NCBI GenBank assembly: GCA_029834535.1
Contig: JAQMWT010000246.1
Coordinates: forward strand, 21,672 to 85,671
DNA: 64,000 bases
Direction: 5' to 3'
Source: Chrysophaeum taylorii
Lineage: Eukaryota > Sar > Pelagophyceae > Pelagomonadales > Pelagomonadaceae
Part shown: positions 30,059 to 41,510 of the stretch, one piece after another
Layout: each line of letters opens with the position of its first letter
Numbering within the stretch: position 1 is the first letter of the stretch
Program-made: the position numbers and the translations under genes
Notes under the pieces: generated by a model
What the model was told of the DNA's origin: nothing
The model's input: the letters and a program-made list of their open reading frames with translations, nothing else
Database searches by the model: none

Positions 30059-30727
30059 ATGGGTCGTCGTCCCGCGCGGTGCTCTCGGTTCCAGAAGAAC
30101 AAGCCTTACATCAAGAGTCGGTACTGCCGCGGCGTCCCCGACGCGAAGATTCGCATCTTCGACTGCGGGAACAAAAAAGCGTCCGTGGACCAGTTTCCGT
30201 TCGTCGCGCACCTGGTATCGGACGAGAAGGAGCAGATCTCCTCGAACGCGCTCGAGGCCGCCCGCGTCGCGTGCAACAAGTACCTCATCAAGAACTGCGG
30301 TAAGGAAGCGTATCACATTCGCACGCGCGTCCACCCGTTCCACGTGATCCGTCAGAATAAGATGTTGAGTTGTGCGGGCGCCGATCGCCTGTCGTCGGGC
30401 ATGCGGCACTCTTACGGTAAGCCGATGGAGCGCGCAGCGCGCGTCTCGATCGGTCAAGCGGTGTTGTCCGTCCGCGCCAAGGACGCCAACGCGGATGCGG
30501 TCATCGTGGCGCTCCGTCGCGCCAAGTTCAAGTTTCCCGGGCGTCAGAAGATTTTGCGCTCCGCCAAGTGGGGTTTTACCAAATTCGAGCGCGAGACTTA
30601 CGTCAAGGGTCGCCAGGAAAAGTGGCTCGAGGCGGCGGGCTCGGCCGTTAAGTGCATCCCACAGAAGGGCCGCATCGGCGCGTCCCAGGATGTTCGCTAC
30701 ATCAATACCCATGTCCACATGGACTAG
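30059..30727 (+). CDS. RPL10: Large ribosomal subunit protein uL16 (RPL10/QM)
   Basis: An intronless frame of 222 residues, full length for RPL10. It begins [20 protein letters not shown] and contains the conserved [22 protein letters not shown] region and [13 protein letters not shown] segment of the family (here [16 protein letters not shown]). The protein joins the 60S subunit last in the cytoplasm and shapes the peptidyl-transferase and tRNA-binding region. The start is fixed by the family N-terminus. It neighbours RLP24, another 60S factor, on the same strand. Confidence 0.98.
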
Positions 30728-31019: not shown

Positions 31020-31541
31020 ATGTGAGCGACCGAGGCGTGCTATCATCTCACGCGTTTGCGCAGGCGCATCGGGAAGTGTTTCTTCTGTTCTTCGCCCGTC
31101 TACCCCGGGCATGGAATCGCGTTCGTTCGTAACGACGCGAAAACGTTTCAGTTCTGTCGGTCCAAGTGCCACAAGAACTTTATTCTCAAGCGCAACCCGC
31201 GCAAGGTCCGATGGACCAAGGCCTTCCGCAAGGTCCACGGCAAGGAGATGACGGTCGATACGACCTTCGAAATGGAGAAGCGAAGAAACCGACCAATCAA
31301 GTACGACCGCGACCTCGTGGGCACGACGCTGCGCGCGATGCAACGCGCGGGCGAAGTTCAGGAGAAGCGCGCTGCGCTCCACTACAAGAACCGCATGGCC
31401 CAGCACAAGCTCAAGGCCACCGAGAGGGCGCGCGTCGAGATCAAGGACACGGTCGATCTCGCCGCGCCGCTGGACCGGGAGCGCGAGACTCAGGAGGTTA
31501 CGATGCGGGACACCCAGCGGCAGACCGTCAGGGCCGAATAA
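31020..31541 (+). CDS. RLP24: Ribosome biogenesis protein RLP24
   Basis: The coding part is 31020-31021 joined to 31064-31541, giving 159 residues. The start codon itself is split: AT before a 42-nt GTGAGC...GCAG intron and G after it, yielding [18 protein letters not shown], which matches the invariant N-terminus of the RLP24/eL24 family. Without splicing the only ATG there reads ATG-TGA. The zinc-binding CxxC...CxxxC set (CFFC and CRSKC) is intact. The basic middle ([19 protein letters not shown]) identifies RLP24 rather than ribosomal eL24, as does the length and the Glu-rich helical tail. RLP24 holds the eL24 site on nuclear pre-60S particles and recruits the AAA-ATPase that removes it. 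Confidence 0.93.
31022..31063 (+). other. 42-nt intron inside the RLP24 start codon
   Basis: GTGAGC donor and TTTGCGCAG acceptor with a pyrimidine-containing 3' part. It interrupts the ATG after its second base. Confidence 0.85.
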
Positions 31542-31722: not shown

Positions 31723-31961
31723 CTGTCTGTTTGTTTGTCTTTAAAGGTCGACTGCTAAGAGGGGGGTGTGTGTGGAGGGCATGAAGGATGTGGGTGGTTT
31801 TGTGCGGGAGGAGGGATGTGCCTGACGGGCGGAGATAAGTAGCAGTCTGTTTGTTTGTCTTTAAAGGGCGACTGCTAAGAGGGGGGTGTGTGTGGGGGGC
31901 ATGAAGGATGTGGGTGGTTTTGGGGGGTAGGAGGGATGTGCCTGACGGGCGGAGATATGTA
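31723..31961 (+). repeat. Two tandem ~120-bp dispersed-repeat units
   Basis: Two near-identical units run from about 31723 and 31847. Each has TTTGTTTGTCTTTAAAG, GCGACTGCTAAGAGGGGGGT and ends GTGCCTGACGGGCGGAGATA. Related inverted copies lie at about 41205-41300 and 53330-53450. A (GTCT)n tract precedes the first unit. The LTR retrotransposon starts right after the second unit. Confidence 0.85.
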
Positions 31962-32552
31962 TGGCGGCACAGAAAAACCTTCCCGACCCCGGGTGACAAA
32001 GGGGGTACTTACCGACTCGTCCTAGACCTCACTGAACGAGGAAAACACGGACTCGGGGTCGGGTATGCTCGCCACTCACCTTGCTCACGCTCACCAAGCC
32101 TCTCAACAAGATGGAGAGATGGAATATGATAGCAAGGATACTAGTATTAGGGTCGGATAAGAAAGTTCGTACGAGCCGTTAACTATGTTTCAGTTTGTAC
32201 TAAGACATACTCAACGGATCGCTGAGCTATGTTCATTTGTACTCAAGCAGTATGTGCCGCCACGCCGCGAGATCGTCGCGATGGAACTAGTCCCCATAGT
32301 GAAGTCGGCATCCTTTCGTCCCCTCACGCAAAAAAAGGAAAAAGCCCACGCGTTGTAGGACCCGTCGTTGCGGCGCGGGCTAGTCTCGTTTTCTTATCCG
32401 ACCCTATTACTACTACAAGAACACAGCAAGAATGCTTCTCACAAGAGAGAGGTATGATGTCACTAAGAAGATAGGGAAAGGTGTCCCGTTGAACGGGTAT
32501 CAAGCATCGAGAGAGAGAGGGTAAGCCTTAGAGATCAGGAGTTGCCACCACA
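31962..32552 (-). repeat. 3' LTR with nested MITE
   Basis: Matches 40821-41131 once the MITE and its TATTA duplication are removed; there is also a ~22-bp difference near 32098-32120. The ends read TGGCGGC...CCACA on the plus strand, so TG...CA in element orientation. Confidence 0.9.
32150..32404 (+). mobile_element. MITE, copy 2, inserted in the LTR
   Basis: 255 bp with 15-bp terminal inverted repeats (GGGTCGGATAAGAAA). It is flanked by TATTA at 32145-32149 and 32405-32409. The other LTR has GATACTACAAGAACAC at the equivalent place, that is, the empty site. Confidence 0.95.
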
Positions 32553-32582: not shown

Positions 32583-33080
32583 TCAGCGAGTCCGGCGAGA
32601 AGCACGAGCCTGGGCTGAATGAGCGTCTCGGGAACGAATCTTCTTGTAGACACGTTCAACGACAGGTTCAGGAACGCGTCCACCACGCAAAGTGAACTTA
32701 GGAATCAACACATCGATCTCATGCAGGTCGAAGTCGGTGACACAAGGAGTGGAACTGTTGTTGACCTTGGTCTTGTCGGTGAAACTGCGACCGTCCACGT
32801 CCTTGTATTCCGGCTTAAGCTCGCGAGTAGAGAGATGTGAAGTAGGCTTGTAATAAGAAACTTTGTCATGGGGACCGAGATCAGCATAGAAATGCAGAGC
32901 GACTCGATCATTCACAAAATCATAGAGTTCATAAACTTCAGCGACATAAATCTTCTTTCGCCAATCGGACCGTTTATTATCCGGAATCCGAAAGATAACG
33001 AACTTACCATGCTTGTAATCATCCCGAAAGGTCTCCTTGGGCTTGGGCACAGCTCGATCGACCACTGGAGAAACCATCAC
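32583..33080 (-). CDS. Retrotransposon C-terminal extension after integrase
   Basis: An open frame of about 165 residues following the integrase GPY/F-like segment on the same strand. It contains HGKFVIFRIPDNKRSDWRKK and YVAEVYELYDFVNDRVALHF, a beta-rich pattern reminiscent of chromo/Tudor-like barrels found at the C-terminus of some gypsy integrases, followed by a basic tail. The domain identity is a guess. It is probably the end of pol, separated from the main frame by a stop or frameshift. Confidence 0.5.
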   Translation of the reverse strand: MMVSPVVDRAVPKPKETFRDDYKHGKFVIFRIPDNKRSDWRKKIYVAEVYELYDFVNDRVALHFYADLGPHDKVSYYKPTSHLSTRELKPEYKDVDGRSFTDKTKVNNSSTPCVTDFDLHEIDVLIPKFTLRGGRVPEPVVERVYKKIRSRDAHSAQARASRRTR

Positions 33081-33769: not shown

Positions 33770-35152
33770 TTACTCGAGGATTGACTCAGCAGTCTTATGG
33801 TGTAGTGCGTCAAGAATCAAGAAATGAGAAAATGGATCAAAAAAGACGATGAGATATGTCTCGGGACCAGCACTGGGCAAAGGTCCAAACAAATCCATAC
33901 AAAGGACGACACAATCACCATCATACACCGGTTGCTGAAGCAGACCTGCTCGCTTTGGTTCAGGCGTACGAGCTTTCTTGCACACTATGCAACCAGCAAT
34001 GTAAGCACCCACCTCATTAGACATATGGGGCCACCAAAAACGTTCAAGTATCGACTGCACTGTACTTTGACGACCCATATGACCACCGTTGAGAGGTGTG
34101 TCATGGTACAATCGGATGATGCGCGTCCGTAAAGTTCGGGGTGCGACTATCATCGGGTGCAAGTCGGGTGCGGCACGGTAGAGAACTCCTTTCACCACTT
34201 GATAGCGATAATTGGCTCCGTACCGACGAAGAGAATGGCCCTGAGCCACGCGATAACGAATGTCCTCGCAAGTAGCATCAGTGATCTGCTCTTTGGCTAT
34301 CTCTTCCAAAGTCAAATTATCCGGAATCTTGTCGATGTACTCTTGGTAATCATCGGCATCACGGAAAATACTAGGCTGGGTCTGCAGTCGTTGCTTCTGA
34401 CGTTGTTTCGTAGCATGAGACGTGACCAATTGCATCGGATCATCGAGGTCTTCTTTCTCTTCCTCCACAGGCAACTCAGTCGTAACAAACGACAGAATGA
34501 CATGGCACCCAGGTAAAGGTACTCCTTCATCATCAACAGAACGAGGGAGTTCTTGGCACACTAGATACGCGTGGTTCAAGGGTTCACCAAACTCGTCCGT
34601 CTCGATGACATGATCTATAGGATTGCGAGAGAGACAGTCAGGGATGCTCATTCCCGGCGACTTCCCTGGCTTGTAACCCAATTCAGGATCAAAATTGGCG
34701 AGCCGCATCGCCCATCGAGCCAACTGCCCAGACGAGTGCTTCGCCTTTCGTAAATACGTCAAGTTGCGATGATCTGTTTCAAGGATCGTCTTGTGACCTT
34801 CAATATAAGAGTGGAAATGCTCAAGAGAAAGAATAACTGCCAGTAGCTCTAGCCGGCGAGGCTCATAGTTCCGCATCTCTTTCGGCACAGCTCGGCTCCA
34901 ATACTCAATTACTCGTTCCTCTCGTGTCACCTTGCCGGTTTCGTCCTTGATTTCCACGAGCTGAAAAAGATACGCACCCAGACCATCCTTGGAAGCATCC
35001 GAGCGGATCTGAAAAGGAAGATCGTAGTCAGGATGATAAACTCCACGAGAATCCACCAAAGCTTCGATGATCTGTGGCCCATGCCTTTTGGCACTCAGGC
35101 GCCCACTCAAACTTAGCGCCTTCAAGACACAATCGCCTAAGCGGCTCCACAA
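33770..35152 (-). CDS. Retrotransposon RNase H and integrase N-terminal part
   Basis: About 460 residues. The first half is RNase H of the gypsy type: IRSDASKDGLGAYLFQ (first Asp), RRLELLAVILSLEHF (Glu), TDHRNLTYL (Asp). An acidic linker follows. The second half is the integrase zinc finger (H near HDTPLNGGHMG, C-x2-C in GCIVCKKAR) and the start of the catalytic core with VLCMDLFGPLP. The first ~40 residues after the nominal start are frame noise; the true pol frame from RT enters by a shift near 35150-35190. Confidence 0.85.
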   Translation of the reverse strand: MWSRLGDCVLKALSLSGRLSAKRHGPQIIEALVDSRGVYHPDYDLPFQIRSDASKDGLGAYLFQLVEIKDETGKVTREERVIEYWSRAVPKEMRNYEPRRLELLAVILSLEHFHSYIEGHKTILETDHRNLTYLRKAKHSSGQLARWAMRLANFDPELGYKPGKSPGMSIPDCLSRNPIDHVIETDEFGEPLNHAYLVCQELPRSVDDEGVPLPGCHVILSFVTTELPVEEEKEDLDDPMQLVTSHATKQRQKQRLQTQPSIFRDADDYQEYIDKIPDNLTLEEIAKEQITDATCEDIRYRVAQGHSLRRYGANYRYQVVKGVLYRAAPDLHPMIVAPRTLRTRIIRLYHDTPLNGGHMGRQSTVQSILERFWWPHMSNEVGAYIAGCIVCKKARTPEPKRAGLLQQPVYDGDCVVLCMDLFGPLPSAGPETYLIVFFDPFSHFLILDALHHKTAESILE

Positions 35153-35191: not shown

Positions 35192-36445
35192 TCATACCAA
35201 TGAAAGATCGAATCTGGGTCTTCGGGGACGTTTGGGCAACGTACCGGGAATCGGCATCTGCTGCAACGCTTCTAACGTCTTGGGATTCGGCTTCAAGCCT
35301 TCCGGAGTCGAAATATGTCCCAAAAACTCGATTTCATCCTTGAGGAGGTGGAACTTCGAAGTTCGTCCACTATATCCTCGCTGTGCTAAATGGCACAACA
35401 CTTCAATCAAAACTTGTAAATGTCGATGGAGTTCATCCGATCCCATCATAATATCGTCGACAAACGCGACCAAGTCCTTATACATCCATGTGGACAAATC
35501 GCTAGCCATCTGCTTACAAAAGAGAGCTCCTGCTGTTTTTACTCCTAGAGGCAAGCGCAAGAAACTATGGGCTCCAAGTGGACTAACCATCGTAACAGCG
35601 TCCTGAGCAGCGGCGTCCAAACGTAAGTTATGATAACCCCATCGAATATCAATGCACGTCCGCCAACGGCGCATGGCAAGAAAAGCCAAAGCATCATCTT
35701 GACGAATATTCGGCCAACTGTCATTGACCAGCTGATCATTGAGCTGACGCAAGTCAACTGCAGCACGAAAAGCATTCGACGTCCCGGCCTCGGCTCCCTT
35801 CTTAGGCAGCATCAGTACAGGAAATCCCCACGGAGAGTTCGCCGGTCGGATGACTCCATCGCGACACCACTCAGTGATCTGCTTTCTGAGACACTCGAGC
35901 TTTGCTGGCGTCAACCTATAAGGCGTCATCTTGATCGGTCGTGGGTTTGCGTCTTTAAAGCGTAGAGAAACCGGTGGCGAGTCCACGGGTCTCATAATCG
36001 GATCAAAGAAAGCCCACGCGTATTGCACGCAGTGGCTCAACATCATCTTCGCATCATCATCCAGATGCGGGTTGTCGGGAATTCCTAGATCTCGAACAAC
36101 CTTTTCAACTTCTTCCTTCGTCGGAATTACGACTTTCATCGCATCATTGTCCTTGACGTGCTCGGGAATCTGCGGTAACGGTACACCGTCCGCATCGCGC
36201 GGCGCATCCTTCCATGGCACATCGAACTTTTCTTCGTATTTGAACCTCACCTCAGGGTGGCTCTTATTGATCTTTTCACCTTTGACGCGCACATTCGGCT
36301 CGCTCCTTACTTTCGGCTCCTGTTCAGGTTCAGGATCCGGCGGAACGTCCACTTTTGATTGTCGGGGGGGGCAGCAGAAAAAGCATGAGCCGTCCCCGGC
36401 GCATCTGTTGGAAGCGGAAGCATAGGAACTTCTGGCGGTTCCCAT
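35192..36445 (-). CDS. Retrotransposon reverse transcriptase
   Basis: About 390 residues of gypsy-type RT after the frame entry. Visible motifs are DGVIRPANSPWGFPVLMLPK, FRAAVDLRQLND, DIRWGYHNLRL, LPLGVKTAGALF, and the catalytic box LVAFVDDIMMGS, then FLGHISTPEGLKPNP. Both Asp of VDD are intact. The first ~25 residues of the frame overlap the methyltransferase ORF; the shift between them coincides with a run of eight G (plus strand) at 36364-36371, so it may be an indel, a sequencing artefact or programmed frameshifting. Confidence 0.92.
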   Translation of the reverse strand: MGTARSSYASASNRCAGDGSCFFCCPPRQSKVDVPPDPEPEQEPKVRSEPNVRVKGEKINKSHPEVRFKYEEKFDVPWKDAPRDADGVPLPQIPEHVKDNDAMKVVIPTKEEVEKVVRDLGIPDNPHLDDDAKMMLSHCVQYAWAFFDPIMRPVDSPPVSLRFKDANPRPIKMTPYRLTPAKLECLRKQITEWCRDGVIRPANSPWGFPVLMLPKKGAEAGTSNAFRAAVDLRQLNDQLVNDSWPNIRQDDALAFLAMRRWRTCIDIRWGYHNLRLDAAAQDAVTMVSPLGAHSFLRLPLGVKTAGALFCKQMASDLSTWMYKDLVAFVDDIMMGSDELHRHLQVLIEVLCHLAQRGYSGRTSKFHLLKDEIEFLGHISTPEGLKPNPKTLEALQQMPIPGTLPKRPRRPRFDLSLV

Positions 36446-38112
36446 TTAGTGGGATCCTGGAGATCATCCTTTGACACCCACTTAACGACACGAGTACGCG
36501 TATTTAACAGCGGAATCTCTACGTGACGAAAGGTGGTGTCGGAGATTCGCAAATACTGCTCAAAGGATCGATCTGTCGGGCTCAACGCGGTCGGCAGGAC
36601 TTCACCACTTTGGCGGAAACCTCTGGTCACGGAGTTGTGCAGATCGACTGCTAAAATCGCAAGAGTATCTGGAGGGACGACAGACGCTAAATGTTTGAAC
36701 GAATCTGTCTTAGACAAGCTAGCCCAATCATGATCCACCGGCATCGTGAGCAACTCGGCCGTCATCTTGAGAGTCAAAGGCTGAGTGTCCGAGCGATGCG
36801 GTCCCAAACGAAGAGGAACTCGCGTAACGGTGTAAGCCGTATCTGTTGCTTCTCGGGACGAGCCAAGATTATTCAGCTGGAGCAGGTGGCGTTCATGAGC
36901 ATAACCTAAAGCTGCAGCAAATTTTTGTTGCATGTTCACACATGTCTTCGGAGCCTCTTGCAAGTGCAGTGGGTGACTGGAAACCAACAATCGCACGCGA
37001 GAGCTCATCAGAGTGGGCGTGATATCATGAAAATTGACGACGTACACGTAAGGGTGTAAGCGCGCTATATACGAAATAATGGACGCCTCCTGTTCAATCA
37101 GCCACATCATGAAGCCAGCCATTTTGCACAGCTTCATCGTCCAGTTAGTGGCCGTAACACCCCTGCCAACATCTCTGGATGTCAAGTTGCAGAGTGCTGA
37201 ATGAACGCAGGGCGGAGACGCTATACACATCGACGATGACCATTCCGCTTCAGGCAAATAAGCCTTGATCAACCGGAGGGTCGAGTCATATCGTCCACAG
37301 AGCGTGTGCTGGACCACAGGTATCTTCGGAAAATTCTTCTGATGAACCTTGTTGGCAGCTGTTGACGAGTCAAGAGCAAGGACGACTCGAAACGACGTCC
37401 CGCACAACTCGTTCGCTCGTTGCAGTCCTAAAGTACTTCCTCCGGCGCCGCTGAAGAGCATCACAACCTTGCGATACGTGATCGGCACCCAGTGGACCTT
37501 TTCAAACCTTCGGCGAATCTCGCATTCTGTAACTTCTCGGCATTTCTTTTCCTCCTCGTCAGTTCGTCGGTCGAAATCGTCGTTACCGAGCGATTCTTGA
37601 CGAGAATTCTTCTTCTTATCGGCAGAAGGAGACGCCTTCTGCACTGAGCTCAAAAGCATCGGTTCGGGAGCCGCATTGCCTTGAGTAAGATGGCTTGCGA
37701 CCGAAACAGTGAATGATAGGTTAGCCTTGTTAGATTCGGCTTCACCATCCTTCGTTAAATCGTCGACCGTCTCAGCATTCAGCTCGTCATCAAAACGAAC
37801 AATATCGCCCAAAGCAAGGACTTCACCTTGAGTGATCACGGTCGGCACATCCTGGGTAGAGGATATCGCCACTCGAGCTGCGAACTTATCATGATCCTCA
37901 GGAGAAGAACACATTCCTTCGACTACCCCGAGTTGCTCGTACCCAGAAGACGTAGCAACGAAAACTTGCCCAGTTTCCACGGGCTCTGAAAGAGCGACTG
38001 GCACGCAGTAGGTGCGCCCAGGCTCGACCTTCATCGTGCGCGCAGCATATGCTATCACTTCATAGGCATCGCTGTTCAAACTTTGAGAAGGCGTAACTGG
38101 AGGGACTCCCAA
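36307..38112 (-). CDS. C5-cytosine DNA methyltransferase domain within pol
   Basis: An uninterrupted frame of about 600 residues. The first ~200 residues are the post-protease linker, with a beta-rich segment then a charged low-complexity part. From about residue 215 a complete C5 methyltransferase is visible: motif I VMLFSGAGGSTLGLQRA (AdoMet binding), motif II ALDSSTAANKVHQKNFP, motif IV SPPCVHSALCN with the catalytic PPC, motif VI WLIEQ (ENV replaced by EQE but the Glu kept), motif VIII SSRVRLLVSS (RxR), motif IX LKMTAELLTMPVDHDW and motif X SVVPPDTLAILAVDL. The target-recognition part between VIII and IX is short (about 70 residues). It lies between protease and RT, on the same strand. 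Related captures are known from a few algal and dinoflagellate retrotransposons; this looks like another. Confidence 0.82.
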   Translation of the reverse strand: MGVPPVTPSQSLNSDAYEVIAYAARTMKVEPGRTYCVPVALSEPVETGQVFVATSSGYEQLGVVEGMCSSPEDHDKFAARVAISSTQDVPTVITQGEVLALGDIVRFDDELNAETVDDLTKDGEAESNKANLSFTVSVASHLTQGNAAPEPMLLSSVQKASPSADKKKNSRQESLGNDDFDRRTDEEEKKCREVTECEIRRRFEKVHWVPITYRKVVMLFSGAGGSTLGLQRANELCGTSFRVVLALDSSTAANKVHQKNFPKIPVVQHTLCGRYDSTLRLIKAYLPEAEWSSSMCIASPPCVHSALCNLTSRDVGRGVTATNWTMKLCKMAGFMMWLIEQEASIISYIARLHPYVYVVNFHDITPTLMSSRVRLLVSSHPLHLQEAPKTCVNMQQKFAAALGYAHERHLLQLNNLGSSREATDTAYTVTRVPLRLGPHRSDTQPLTLKMTAELLTMPVDHDWASLSKTDSFKHLASVVPPDTLAILAVDLHNSVTRGFRQSGEVLPTALSPTDRSFEQYLRISDTTFRHVEIPLLNTRTRVVKWVSKDDLQDPTKWEPPEVPMLPLPTDAPGTAHAFSAAPPDNQKWTFRRILNLNRSRK

Positions 38113-38843
38113 GTCGTCGAAGCTCCCGCTCGTTTCGGCGGTGGACGCTGGAGGTCTTCAATCTTGCACAAGCGAGCGTAGACTCGGTTCTCAACTGTGT
38201 TCAGGCTTTGTTGCATCGCATGGTGCTGTTGCCCATAAACCTGAACTACCACGGGATTGCTCTCGTCATAAGTTGTTCTGAACGTCAAAATCGGAGAATC
38301 TACTCGTCGATCCTGCACCTTTAACTTCTTGCGCCCGTAAGCGACTTGTGAGCGTAGAAACACAATGCGATTTCGCGGGTAGTCCACTATGGCTCCAAAC
38401 ACCCGAATATCGCGCGCTCCCAGCAAAGATAGATGATTAGTATCGGCCACAATAGCAACAACTGGAACGGCTACGTCGTCCGCAAGCGCAATCCGCAATG
38501 CAATCCATTTGTGGATAGTCGTTTTGTTCAATCCTGATCCATACAAAGTGCGATCGACTGGAAGATCGCCCCGGTCAAGGATGATGCTATCCTTTTCCAG
38601 TTTTTCAACCATCCCACGACAAATATAAGAGACATCAGCCATTCCATCCACGCCTAAAGTCGTTGCAAACATCGGCCCGTCTCGTCGTCTATAAATGTGA
38701 CCAACTATAAACGTAAGGGTACCAGGGTCCAGGCAACCGATGGTGATGAGATCTTGCTCGATCTTTTCCCCATCGCTCGGCGACAGTGCAGTGTGATGAC
38801 ATCGTATCTCCGGTTTCGCATCGCCCGGTATCTGCATCGTCAC
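38076..38843 (-). CDS. Retropepsin-like protease region
   Basis: An open frame of about 255 residues. The middle shows an aspartic-protease pattern: LGVDGMADVSYI at the place of the usual DTGA(D)xS active site, and later LLGARDIRVFGAIVDYPRNRIVF, which fits the I-L-G-x-D and flap-to-end part of retropepsins. The active-site triplet is DGM rather than DTG/DSG, so activity is doubtful in this copy. The frame shifts near 38130 into the methyltransferase ORF (EDLQRPP, then SFDDLGVPPVTP in the next frame). Confidence 0.65.
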   Translation of the reverse strand: MTMQIPGDAKPEIRCHHTALSPSDGEKIEQDLITIGCLDPGTLTFIVGHIYRRRDGPMFATTLGVDGMADVSYICRGMVEKLEKDSIILDRGDLPVDRTLYGSGLNKTTIHKWIALRIALADDVAVPVVAIVADTNHLSLLGARDIRVFGAIVDYPRNRIVFLRSQVAYGRKKLKVQDRRVDSPILTFRTTYDESNPVVVQVYGQQHHAMQQSLNTVENRVYARLCKIEDLQRPPPKRAGASTTWESLQLRLLKV

Positions 38844-38864: not shown

Positions 38865-40387
38865 TCATCTCGCCGTTGAATCTATATTGGCGCTCGCCGC
38901 TTCGGCTGCTTCCTCATTCCCCAATTTCGCTGACAACAAGTTCGGACACTTCTCAATCGGAGGCACATATATCTCCTCCTTTATCTCTTCTGGTAATCGT
39001 CGTTTCTCGTCCATCAAATCGGACATTCCCGTCAACTTCTCCTCCATCGGCGCCGCTGTGGTCTGCTCTGCTGCGACCAAAACTGTATCGGCTAGAACAT
39101 CGGCTAAAACGGCTAAAACGGTCTCGGGGGGGGGCGTAGGAAAAGAAGACGTCGTCCCCGACGTCAACTCAAAGGTCTAACGTCATCATCGTGAACTGCC
39201 CTGCAAGACATGTACATTGACGAATGGGGGGACACTGGAACCTGCGGCATGGGTTCGTCGGTCTCCGAACCTGAGTCTTCCCAGTAGTGCGGAGAATCCC
39301 AAGTAGCATCTGACATTGCTTCCACATACGATGTAGAAGGCCACCGAACGATCCGAGCGTTGGTGGTATGTTGCTCCTGTTGCAAACGATGGCTGTCGTC
39401 ACAGCGACATCGGCAACATCATCGGAGACTCCGGCAGGGCGCGCCGTCGGGTAAAAGACAACCCCCGACATTGGCGGCGCGTCGCATAAAGATTGGAACG
39501 CGAAAGTTGCGCTCGAATGTCCCGAACTATCCTGATATCTGCCTCCGTCATACTCGTCATCATAATGTCGATGACGTCGGCGCCGGCGCGAATTGCGACT
39601 AGAGCTCCGGTGACGGCAAGGACTCGGGCTGCTTTGAGCAGTATGGGCTTTTCGATCAGGGCTCTGGCTTCGATGTCGGCGCGACGATCGTCTAGAAGGC
39701 GATCGTCCGTCTCGCTGTCGTGTAGAAAACGACGTAGTATCCTTGATGCCTCTGACCTCGCTCACCATGGTCGCCATTGTGGTTCCAAGATCGGTGAGGG
39801 CCATTTGAAATTCATTAGAAGGCTCCGATCCGTGCGTGGCGTTCGCATGAGATGCATCATCACGCTTCGTCCAATCGGACCGCGATATGGGCTGCTTCTT
39901 CTGCTTACGAATTCGCTTCCACATCGCACAGTAGTAACGATCCGGATCGCGGTTGCAAACTACGCGACTTCCGTGTTCATCTTCATCATGGGTGGTCCAG
40001 AAGAACCCACAATGCGGGCACGTTCTCTTGCCCCACAAAAAAAGGATCTCGTAAGATCAGCGGATCCGTATTCCCAGACGATTTATCCGCATCTTGCTTG
40101 GCTTGACGCTCAGCTAATAGTTCATTTTCGCGACGTCTCCGCTCGAGGTCTTCACGAAGTCGACTTCGAGCTGAAGATCCGCGCTAAATGGTAACACGCT
40201 CGCCACGGTCCGGAGTCGTTGGACTCAACGGCGAAAAAATAGCAGTATCCGGAGGCACGTCAGGGGGCAAGTCAGCAACGTCGACTGCCTCGGCCTCTCT
40301 TAATTCACCTTCCTGGCGGCCTATCTCAGGGGCGGCGGGAAGAACTGGAGGAGATTCTCCCTCACGCACGTCTGCGTTTATCTCCAT
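38865..40387 (-). pseudogene. Retrotransposon gag region, fragmented
   Basis: Three frames on the minus strand: an acidic Pro-rich start (40184-40387, MEINADVREGESPP), a basic section with CPHCGFFW...VVC and RS-rich repeats (39169-40038), and an acidic Pro/Thr/Ala segment (38865-39167). The Cys/His cluster and Arg/Ser-rich region suggest nucleic-acid binding as in nucleocapsid. No classical CCHC knuckle is intact. Identification rests mainly on position between the 5' LTR and the protease. Confidence 0.5.
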
Positions 40388-40820: not shown

Positions 40821-41131
40821 TGGCGGCACAGAAAAACCTTCCCGACCCCCGGGTGACAAAGGGGGTACTCACCGACTCGTCCTAGACCTCACTGAACGAG
40901 GAAAACACGGACTCGGGGTCGGGTATGCTCGCCACACACCTTGCTCACGCTCACCAAGCTATATGATAGCAAGGATACTACAAGAACACAACAAGAATTT
41001 CGAAAGAATGCTTCTCACAAGAGAGAGAGGTATGATGTCACTAAGAAGATAGGGAAAGGTGTCCCGTTGAACGGGTATCAAGCCTCGACACAGAGAGGGT
41101 AAGCCTTAGCGATCAGGAGTTGCTGCCACAA
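40821..41131 (-). repeat. 5' LTR of the retrotransposon
   Basis: 311 bp, the MITE-free counterpart of 31962-32552. Confidence 0.9.
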
Positions 41132-41138
41132 TATGTAT

Positions 41139-41510
41139 GCGGCGGGGCCCGTCCTCTCTTCGCCTGCCCCACGACTCGGCGATGACCCCGACTAGGTCCC
41201 GCGTACTTATCTCCGCCCGTCAGGCACATCCCTCCTACCCCACAAACCCACCCACATCCTTCATGCGCCCCCCACACACCCCCCTCTTAGCAGTCGACAT
41301 TTACAGACAAACCCTCACCGCCCTCACCCGTGTCGCCGCCTCGGGAACCCCACCCAGGCCGCCCGATCCCTGCAGGACGTCACCCTTCGTCGCACATACG
41401 TCTGGCGGCAGCATGCGTACGACCTACGGGCGGGGCCCGTCCTCTCTTCGCCTGCCCCACGACTCGGCGATGACCCCGACTAGGTCCCGGTAGGTCGTAC
41501 GCATGCTGCG
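41139..41510. repeat. Composite repeat with a 66-bp direct and a 20-bp inverted repeat
   Basis: GGGGCCCGTCCTCTCTTCGC... is present at about 41142-41201 and again at 41431-41490. Between them lie an inverted copy of the 31.7-kb unit (about 41205-41300) and a CCTCGGGAACCCCACCCAGG segment. The second copy is bracketed by a perfect 20-bp inverted repeat (41408-41427 and 41490-41509). The same pieces recur inverted at 56920-57125. Confidence 0.8.

What the first reader, a model, noticed from the sequence alone, without database searches (positions are those of the whole stretch)
36307..38112. LTR retrotransposon with its own C5-cytosine methyltransferase
Between the protease and RT of a Ty3/gypsy element lies an uninterrupted frame with the C5 methyltransferase motifs in order: FSGAGG (I), PPC (IV), WLIEQ (VI, ENV changed), SSRVR (VIII), MTAELLTMP (IX) and SVVPPDTLA (X). 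The catalytic Cys, Glu and RxR are kept. Capture of DNA methyltransferases by retrotransposons is known in a few algae and dinoflagellates (established); whether this element is an independent capture is open. It could methylate its own copies to escape or use host silencing (inference).
Basis: partly seen in the sequence, partly recalled or inferred. Interest (0 to 1): 0.88.

Follow-up and report, generated by a model that had tools for sequence, protein, structure and literature searches.

The report
Retrotransposon carrying its own DNA methyltransferase
A jumping gene of a photosynthetic alga carries, inside its own enzyme polyprotein, a cytosine-methyltransferase domain that selection has kept, and a different class of jumping gene in the same genome carries another one.

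Summary
Frame 36307-38112 (-) of a decayed Ty3/gypsy LTR element holds a divergent C5-cytosine methyltransferase (MT) domain between protease and RT; PF00145 scores 24.4 bits, cut-off 22. It is no chance insertion: capped searches of the 70.8-Mb genome list over 100 MT matches for families A (window) plus B (80% identical core) and over 100 for C (40%), with motifs I, IV, VIII, IX and X kept and the motif VI Glu kept. One B copy is an uninterrupted frame of 3,000+ residues. In the A-B pair compared, the MT core is more constrained (pN/pS 0.17) than both flanking linkers (0.35-0.37). A Ty1/copia lineage in the same genome carries an MT with no detectable relation to it. The host looks like a chlorophyll-a/c alga; the only other C5 methyltransferases the capped scan showed are DNMT2 and DNMT5. 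Precedents exist in dinoflagellates and charophytes; this adds a lineage and MTs not assignable here to Dnmt3. Family A copies show no excess C-to-T at CpG, so lasting CpG self-methylation is not supported, though CpG is mildly lower in some families than in host DNA. Likely it methylates the element's cDNA or RNA; untested.

The parts
41131..41137 (-). target-site duplication TACATAT, 5' side
   Evidence: 7 bp if the LTR is taken as TG...CA
40821..41130 (-). 5' LTR, about 310 bp
39169..40038 (-). gag-like ORF (remnant)
   Evidence: no Pfam match; named by its position before the protease
38076..38843 (-). aspartyl-protease-like ORF (LLGARDIRVFGAIVDY region; motif recognised from recall)
   Evidence: no Pfam match
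36307..38112 (-). ORF with post-protease segment, linker, C5-methyltransferase domain and linker
36600..37500 (-). methyltransferase core, motifs I to X
37438..37455 (-). motif I FSGAGG (SAM binding)
37207..37218 (-). motif IV SPPC (catalytic Cys)
   Evidence: Cys in 30 of 30 loci L001-L030
37087..37101 (-). motif VI LIEQE (Glu kept, ENV changed)
   Evidence: first Glu in 29 of 30 loci
36991..37008 (-). motif VIII MSSRVR (RxR)
   Evidence: RxR in 29 of 30 loci
36739..36765 (-). motif IX MTAELLTMP
36664..36684 (-). motif X SVVPPDT
35192..36445 (-). reverse transcriptase ORF (PF00078)
33770..35152 (-). RNase H and integrase zinc-binding ORF (PF17917, PF17919, PF17921)
32583..33080 (-). integrase C-terminal remnant
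   Evidence: compared by eye with the end of the L061 frame
31962..32552 (-). 3' LTR, carrying a MITE-like insert about 32148-32406
   Evidence: LTR pieces 97.8% (139 nt) and 90.2% (143 nt) identical to the 5' LTR
31955..31961 (-). target-site duplication TACATAT, 3' side

Best explanation
A Ty3/gypsy LTR retrotransposon lineage of what looks like a chlorophyll-a/c alga captured a C5-type methyltransferase domain long ago, before its families A, B and C split, and has kept it between protease and RT. The element makes it as part of its polyprotein (shown as one open frame in a B copy). Inferred: the protease frees it, it is packaged with RT and integrase, and with S-adenosylmethionine it methylates cytosines of the new cDNA (or the RNA template) during replication. 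The mark would be short-lived or rare enough not to leave clear CpG decay, and would help the cDNA pass as self or settle chromatin at the new site. Shown: domain, motifs, place, copy number, purifying selection. Inferred: catalysis, substrate, timing, benefit.
For: PF00145 and PHROG matches. Uninterrupted frame of 3,000 residues across the stretch read (L061; 3063 aa), gag to integrase with the MT inside. MT directly upstream of RT in at least 63 of 100 family A/B RT matches, 54 of the 63 at 78-233 nt (MT rows), and in at least 35 of 73 gypsy-type RT matches taken. Motifs kept between families only about 40% identical. A (L002) against B (L061): dN/dS 0.085 (bootstrap 0.058-0.127) for the MT core and 0.036 for RT; pN/pS 0.166 in the core against 0.353 and 0.369 in the two flanking linkers. 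Published SymbioDIRS and KnitGypsy DNMTs sit in Pol, are under purifying selection, and two SymbioDIRS enzymes methylate CG in yeast (PMC5890265).
Against: No methylation or expression data. Motif VI is EQE in A, B and L063 and EEE in L069, not ENV, and the residue after the catalytic Cys is V or I, not Q, so activity is not certain. In family A, CpG C-to-T singletons (45 of 395 sites) are no more frequent than at CpA (38 of 339), CpC (28 of 263) or CpT (39 of 291), and CpG observed/expected stays above 1 (mean 1.18 in 29 A loci). 37 of 100 A/B RT rows had no listed MT; of the two looked at, one had a decayed MT (L072) and one had gag-region sequence where the MT should be (L071). In the published yeast test KnitGypsy-Dnmt3 and SymbioLINE enzymes gave no methylation, called inconclusive there. 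The single-sequence structure model was useless (pLDDT 31).
Confidence: 0.5

Rival explanations
1. The enzyme acts on RNA: the element's genomic RNA or its tRNA primer, in the manner of DNMT2, and not on DNA.
For: The three best of 5 PDB hits of the window ORF are DNMT2-type (E 0.11 to 0.2, weak; the other two hits are unrelated). hhalign of the gypsy MT alignment with the host DNMT2 gives probability 46 (E 2e-4) over motifs I-VI, against 0.1 with the host DNMT5 piece. An RNA target would explain the missing C-to-T excess at CpG. PMC5890265 raises RNA methylation for SymbioLINE.
Against: The family C domain has a cytosine-specific methyltransferase (8yf3) as its only PDB hit (E 0.17), so the DNMT2 likeness is not stable across families. 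The profile of A1 finds nothing. The CFT tripeptide of DNMT2 (recalled) reads AYT or AFT in the gypsy MTs, by eye.
Confidence: 0.15
2. The MT marks new insertions so that the host DNMT5 keeps them methylated: the element silences itself or its neighbours to limit harm to the host.
For: Host has DNMT5 with an SNF2 domain; no DNMT1 or DNMT3 recognised in the PF00145 scan. DNMT5a loss in a diatom lowers CG methylation and goes with overexpression of young TEs (PMC9998398, passages). CpG observed/expected is lower and TpG and CpA higher in A, C and copia loci (CpG means 1.18, 1.03, 1.06; TpG 1.02, 1.19, 1.13) than in six host loci (1.31; 0.85) and 12 window tiles (1.27; 0.93), the direction expected of mild CpG decay.
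Against: The one B locus does not show it (CpG 1.34, TpG 0.80). C-to-T singletons show no CpG excess in family A nor, with few usable sites, in copia (12 of 44 CpG against 20 of 75 other sites). One search scored 123 of 474 candidates and does not join exons, so other host DNMTs may be missed.
Confidence: 0.15
3. The domain is a passenger or a SAM- or nucleic-acid-binding scaffold that no longer transfers methyl groups.
For: ENV replaced by EQE, PCQ replaced by PC[VI]; no Pfam match outside the motif I region in the window copy.
Against: Cys, first Glu and RxR are kept in 30, 29 and 29 of 30 family A loci (these 30 are the best-scoring of 74 matches, so biased to good ones) and in L061, L063 and L069; constraint above that of the linkers.
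Confidence: 0.12
4. The MT is an anti-viral or counter-defence tool that acts on other DNA in the cell.
For: Proposed in general terms for retrotransposon accessory domains (PMC6338049, passages).
Against: Nothing in the loci read points to a foreign target.
Confidence: 0.05

Closest known systems
KnitGypsy-Dnmt3 of Klebsormidium nitens (PMC5890265)
   Same: Gypsy-type Pol with a C5 methyltransferase in frame, conserved key residues, purifying selection
   Different: That one is Dnmt3-related, in a charophyte, with repeats arranged as in DIRS; here no DNMT3 match, ordinary LTRs in the window copy, MT between protease and RT, another host lineage. Copy numbers were not compared
SymbioDIRS-Dnmt3 and SymbioLINE-Dnmt of Symbiodinium (PMC5890265)
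   Same: Hundreds of retrotransposon-borne DNMTs of more than one class in one algal genome; an orphan DNMT group (SymbioLINE) beside Dnmt3; host genes of the DNMT5 and DNMT2 families
   Different: LINE and DIRS, not LTR gypsy and copia; the paper says Symbiodinium Copia lacks a DNMT; SymbioLINE shows CG depletion, while here mean CpG stays above expectation in the families read
DNMT3 in LTR Copia and DIRS elements (one sentence in PMC12344493)
   Same: Copia-borne C5 methyltransferase, credited there to the 2018 paper on streptophytes and dinoflagellates
   Different: Described there as DNMT3; the copia MT here (L062) is not assigned to DNMT3 by anything run here. The 2018 paper itself calls the charophyte element Gypsy
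Host DNMT2 (L031) and DNMT5 (L068) of the same genome
   Same: Same Pfam family PF00145
   Different: Pfam matched over nearly its whole length and a standard ENV motif; not in an element; the gypsy MT aligns weakly with DNMT2 and not with DNMT5

Membership tests
C5 cytosine methyltransferase (PF00145) | profile match over the curated cut-off | tested here: met
   window ORF 24.4 bits against 22; family C 35.1 and copia MT 32.1; host DNMT2 69.6
C5 cytosine methyltransferase (PF00145) | motif I F.G.GG and motif IV PC with catalytic Cys | tested here: met
C5 cytosine methyltransferase (PF00145) | motif VI ENV | tested here: not met
   EQE in A, B and L063, EEE in L069; the Glu is kept. The copia MT has EN in 28 of 28 loci
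C5 cytosine methyltransferase (PF00145) | motif VIII RxR, motifs IX and X | tested here: met
   conserved across A, B and C; no significant outside match to these motifs in the window copy, and only a 1.3-bit alignment for C
C5 cytosine methyltransferase (PF00145) | fold | tested here: inconclusive
   single-sequence AlphaFold model pLDDT 31
C5 cytosine methyltransferase (PF00145) | methyl transfer activity | not testable with these tools
   needs protein
Ty3/gypsy LTR retrotransposon | LTRs with target-site duplication | tested here: met
Ty3/gypsy LTR retrotransposon | order protease, RT, RNase H, integrase | tested here: met
   Pfam; full frame in L061; protease by recalled motif only
Ty3/gypsy LTR retrotransposon | primer-binding site and polypurine tract | not tested
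   not looked for systematically
Retrotransposon-borne DNMT (de Mendoza et al. 2018) | DNMT in frame within an element ORF, in many copies | tested here: met
Retrotransposon-borne DNMT (de Mendoza et al. [quoted passage not shown]
   A against B 0.085; A against C 0.19 with dS saturated; two C copies, L063 against L069, 0.227 (0.123-0.387)
KnitGypsy-Dnmt3 / SymbioDIRS-Dnmt3 | DNMT belongs to the Dnmt3 clade | tested here: inconclusive
   no DNMT3 chain among PDB matches at E up to 1 (one search matched nothing); no tree with outside references built
DNMT2-type RNA methyltransferase | clear sequence placement with DNMT2 | tested here: inconclusive
   weak only

The most novel reading that the evidence does not exclude
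In this alga the only cytosine methyltransferases beside maintenance-type DNMT5 and the tRNA enzyme DNMT2 are carried by retrotransposons, in two LTR superfamilies that captured unrelated enzymes. The elements, not the host, would then supply the genome's de novo C5 methylation, which DNMT5 merely copies.
Probability: 0.12. Interest if true: 0.92.

Novelty: new variant of a known kind. Interest (0 to 1): 0.72.

Why it matters
Retrotransposons that carry the very enzyme class used to silence them are known from two algal lineages. A further lineage, with gypsy families that kept the enzyme through deep divergence and an apparently separate capture in copia in the same genome, makes convergent capture look like a pattern. 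The genome is small and the (capped) scan showed no host DNMT1 or DNMT3, so what a transposon-borne methyltransferase does for the element, and whether it seeds methylation that DNMT5 keeps, could be tested directly by native methylation calls over many copies.

Tried and rejected
Chance motif string: rejected by PF00145 and PHROGs matches, copy number and selection. One-off insertion: rejected by 131 listed core matches (A and B together). Retrocopy of a host gene: rejected, because the domain lies inside the element polyprotein frame. CpG-decay footprint: tested by private changes, no excess; by composition a mild shift in A, C and copia loci and none in the one B locus. Relatives in viral contigs, prokaryote genomes, phages and plasmids: none, except a 27.5% identity match of the copia MT to one phage (two records, E 1e-3). 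Structure of the window MT alone: useless model, so no fold search was run. One search used a wrong frame for L061 and its figures are void; one search replaces it.

Limits of counts: genome searches score only the best candidates (73 of 1429; 131 of 1013; 120 of 1050; 108 of 951; 86 of 726; 123 of 474; 100 of 1472), so absences are not shown. The best-scoring loci were fetched, so residue counts lean to well-kept copies. Some contigs look like allelic pairs (C10/C297, C25/C521), which inflates counts a little; L028 was dropped from the mutation and composition counts for that reason (29 of 30 loci used). In one search, 73 rows of the gypsy-type class were taken by eye from the listed rows of the 152 RT matches. 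In one search, 100 of 101 rows were used (the second C423 fragment left out). In the copia locus set, L047 is the same copy as L062.
Full report
What was checked. The frame is on the minus strand, 601 codons without a stop. Pfam finds DNA_methylase over its cut-off, PHROGs finds DNA methyltransferase, and NCBIfam dcm is seen only far below its cut-off. Around it on the same strand lie a gag-like ORF and a protease-like ORF (both without a Pfam match, named by place and recalled motif), then RT, RNase H and integrase zinc-binding domains, bounded by LTRs of about 310 bp with the duplicated target TACATAT. The 3' LTR carries a MITE-like insert. The pieces of the window copy are in three frames, so this copy is decayed.

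The genome. The window lies in an unnamed assembly of 70.8 Mb in 697 contigs. It encodes many light-harvesting proteins (84 matches). The one tested has an FCP chain as its best PDB match and other fucoxanthin-type or light-harvesting chains next, with peridinin-type dinoflagellate antennae lower. I infer a chlorophyll-c alga, ochrophyte or haptophyte; the species is not known. In the PF00145 scan (123 of 474 candidates scored) the two best matches are host genes: DNMT2 (L031; PDB DNMT2 E 4e-39) and DNMT5 with an SNF2 domain (L068). The C260 and C57 matches are family C elements. The other rows fall by eye into three classes by profile span; of these, the 28 loci L033-L060 were verified as the copia type.

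Copies. Family A is the window's own, family B is 80% identical in the MT core and family C 38-40%. Listed matches: 74 rows with the whole ORF, 131 with the A core (A and B together, 80-100% identical), 120 with the B core (overlapping the former), 119 rows from 108 scored candidates with the C core (identity down to 65%). L061 (family B, contig C5) is a single frame of 3,000 residues across the fetched stretch, without a stop, reported as 3063 aa. In L063 (family C) the MT again lies between a protease-like region and RT.

Linkage. Of 100 family A/B RT matches, 63 have a listed MT match within 1.5 kb upstream, 54 of them at 78-233 nt. The other 37 are not shown to lack it, because the lists are capped. 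Two were read: C130 has a decayed MT (L072), and C105 has gag-region sequence where the MT should be (L071), so MT-deleted derivatives exist. A wider count over gypsy-type RT matches gave 35 of 73.

Selection. Catalytic Cys is kept in 30 of 30, the motif VI Glu in 29 of 30 and RxR in 29 of 30 family A loci (these are the 30 best-scoring of 74). A (L002) against B (L061): MT core dN/dS 0.085 (bootstrap 0.058-0.127), RT 0.036; A against C 0.19 with dS saturated; two C copies against each other 0.227; window copy against L002 0.065. In a segment comparison of the same A-B pair pN/pS is 0.466 in the stretch before the ORF, 0.388 in the post-protease segment, 0.353 in the linker before the MT, 0.166 in the MT core, 0.369 in the linker after it, 0.129 in the pre-RT part and 0.040 in the RT core. 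So the domain itself, not just the frame, is under constraint, though less than RT. This rests on one pair of copies.

A second capture. A Ty1/copia lineage (L062) has a 1,939-residue frame with a protease-like start (recalled motif), the MT, an integrase match below its cut-off, and RVT_2 over its cut-off. Its MT has PCQ in 28 of 28 loci and EN of motif VI in 28 of 28; some of these loci have stops or gaps elsewhere in the motifs. It is present in 97 rows from 86 scored candidates. hhalign of the gypsy MT alignment with it gives probability 0.1, so the two captures look separate, or are too old to relate; no tree was built.

Footprint of methylation. In 29 family A loci, single-copy C-to-T changes occur at 45 of 395 CpG sites, 38 of 339 CpA, 28 of 263 CpC and 39 of 291 CpT (unrefined count; repeat with slightly wider columns, same result). 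In copia, with few usable sites, 12 of 44 CpG, 6 of 26 CpA, 7 of 28 CpC and 7 of 21 CpT. Mean CpG observed/expected is 1.18 in 29 A loci, 1.03 in 3 C loci, 1.06 in 28 copia loci and 1.34 in the one B locus, against 1.31 in 6 host loci and 1.27 in 12 window tiles outside the element; TpG and CpA are raised in A, C and copia relative to host DNA and TpG is not in B. So mean CpG stays above expectation, recent changes show no CpG bias, and a mild older CpG loss in some families is possible but has other explanations, such as different codon and base make-up. This speaks against permanent heavy self-methylation at CpG, fits transient or RNA methylation, and does not exclude methylation with good repair: DNMT5 is tied to heavy linker methylation in the pelagophyte Aureococcus and others (PMC9998398, passages).

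Literature. PMC5890265 (parts 1-4 of 7 read; passages) reports SymbioLINE-Dnmt, two SymbioDIRS-Dnmt3 forms and KnitGypsy-Dnmt3, says Symbiodinium Copia lacks a DNMT, and shows de novo CG methylation in yeast for the SymbioDIRS enzymes only. PMC12344493 (passages) speaks of DNMT3 in LTR Copia and DIRS in streptophytes and dinoflagellates. PMC6338049 (passages) groups adenine and cytosine methylase elements and names stramenopiles without saying which kind. PMC12477816 (passages) reports a different, N4/N6-type methyltransferase in a brown-algal DNA transposon. PMC3145265 (passages) reports DNMT5 in Aureococcus. I saw no report of a gypsy- or copia-borne C5 methyltransferase in an ochrophyte or haptophyte in the listings of searches (10 of 48 listed; 15 of 94 listed); these cover open-licence PubMed Central papers only, and most listed papers were not opened.

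Verdict. A real, selected, multi-copy accessory methyltransferase domain of LTR retrotransposons: a new variant of a known kind. The enzyme's substrate and purpose are open.

Noticed in passing
L062 (G000:C96:61500-70000), L033-L060: A Ty1/copia lineage in the same genome carries its own C5-methyltransferase domain between a protease-like region and integrase, with PCQ and EN kept in 28 of 28 loci.
   Followed up: partly
L063, L069, L070 and L033-L060: Family C and copia loci have lower CpG and higher TpG and CpA than host DNA (CpG 1.03 and 1.06 against 1.27-1.31), while the one B locus does not.
   Followed up: partly
window 32148-32406: MITE-like insert with terminal inverted repeats TAGGGTCGGATAAG inside the 3' LTR of the element.
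   Followed up: partly
window 31733-31961 and 41204-41312: A repeat of about 109 nt (92.7% identical) flanks the element in inverted orientation, with two tandem copies on the left side.
   Followed up: no
window 36307-36445 and L002: In the window copy and L002 the MT frame and RT frame overlap in different frames, while L061 has one frame through; whether this is a subfamily mutation or a programmed frameshift is not known.
   Followed up: no
G000:C696: One contig has eight RVT_1 matches including the four best listed in the genome, as would be expected of group II intron ORFs in an organelle genome; that reading is inference.
   Followed up: no
L068 (G000:C621:13000-21500): Host DNMT5 gene, methyltransferase plus SNF2.
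   Followed up: yes
G000:C10/C297 and C25/C521: Pairs of contigs give matches at nearly the same coordinates, probably uncollapsed alleles.
   Followed up: no
window 30059-30727 and 31056-31541: Ribosomal proteins uL16 (L10) and eL24 as uninterrupted ORFs close to the element.
   Followed up: partly
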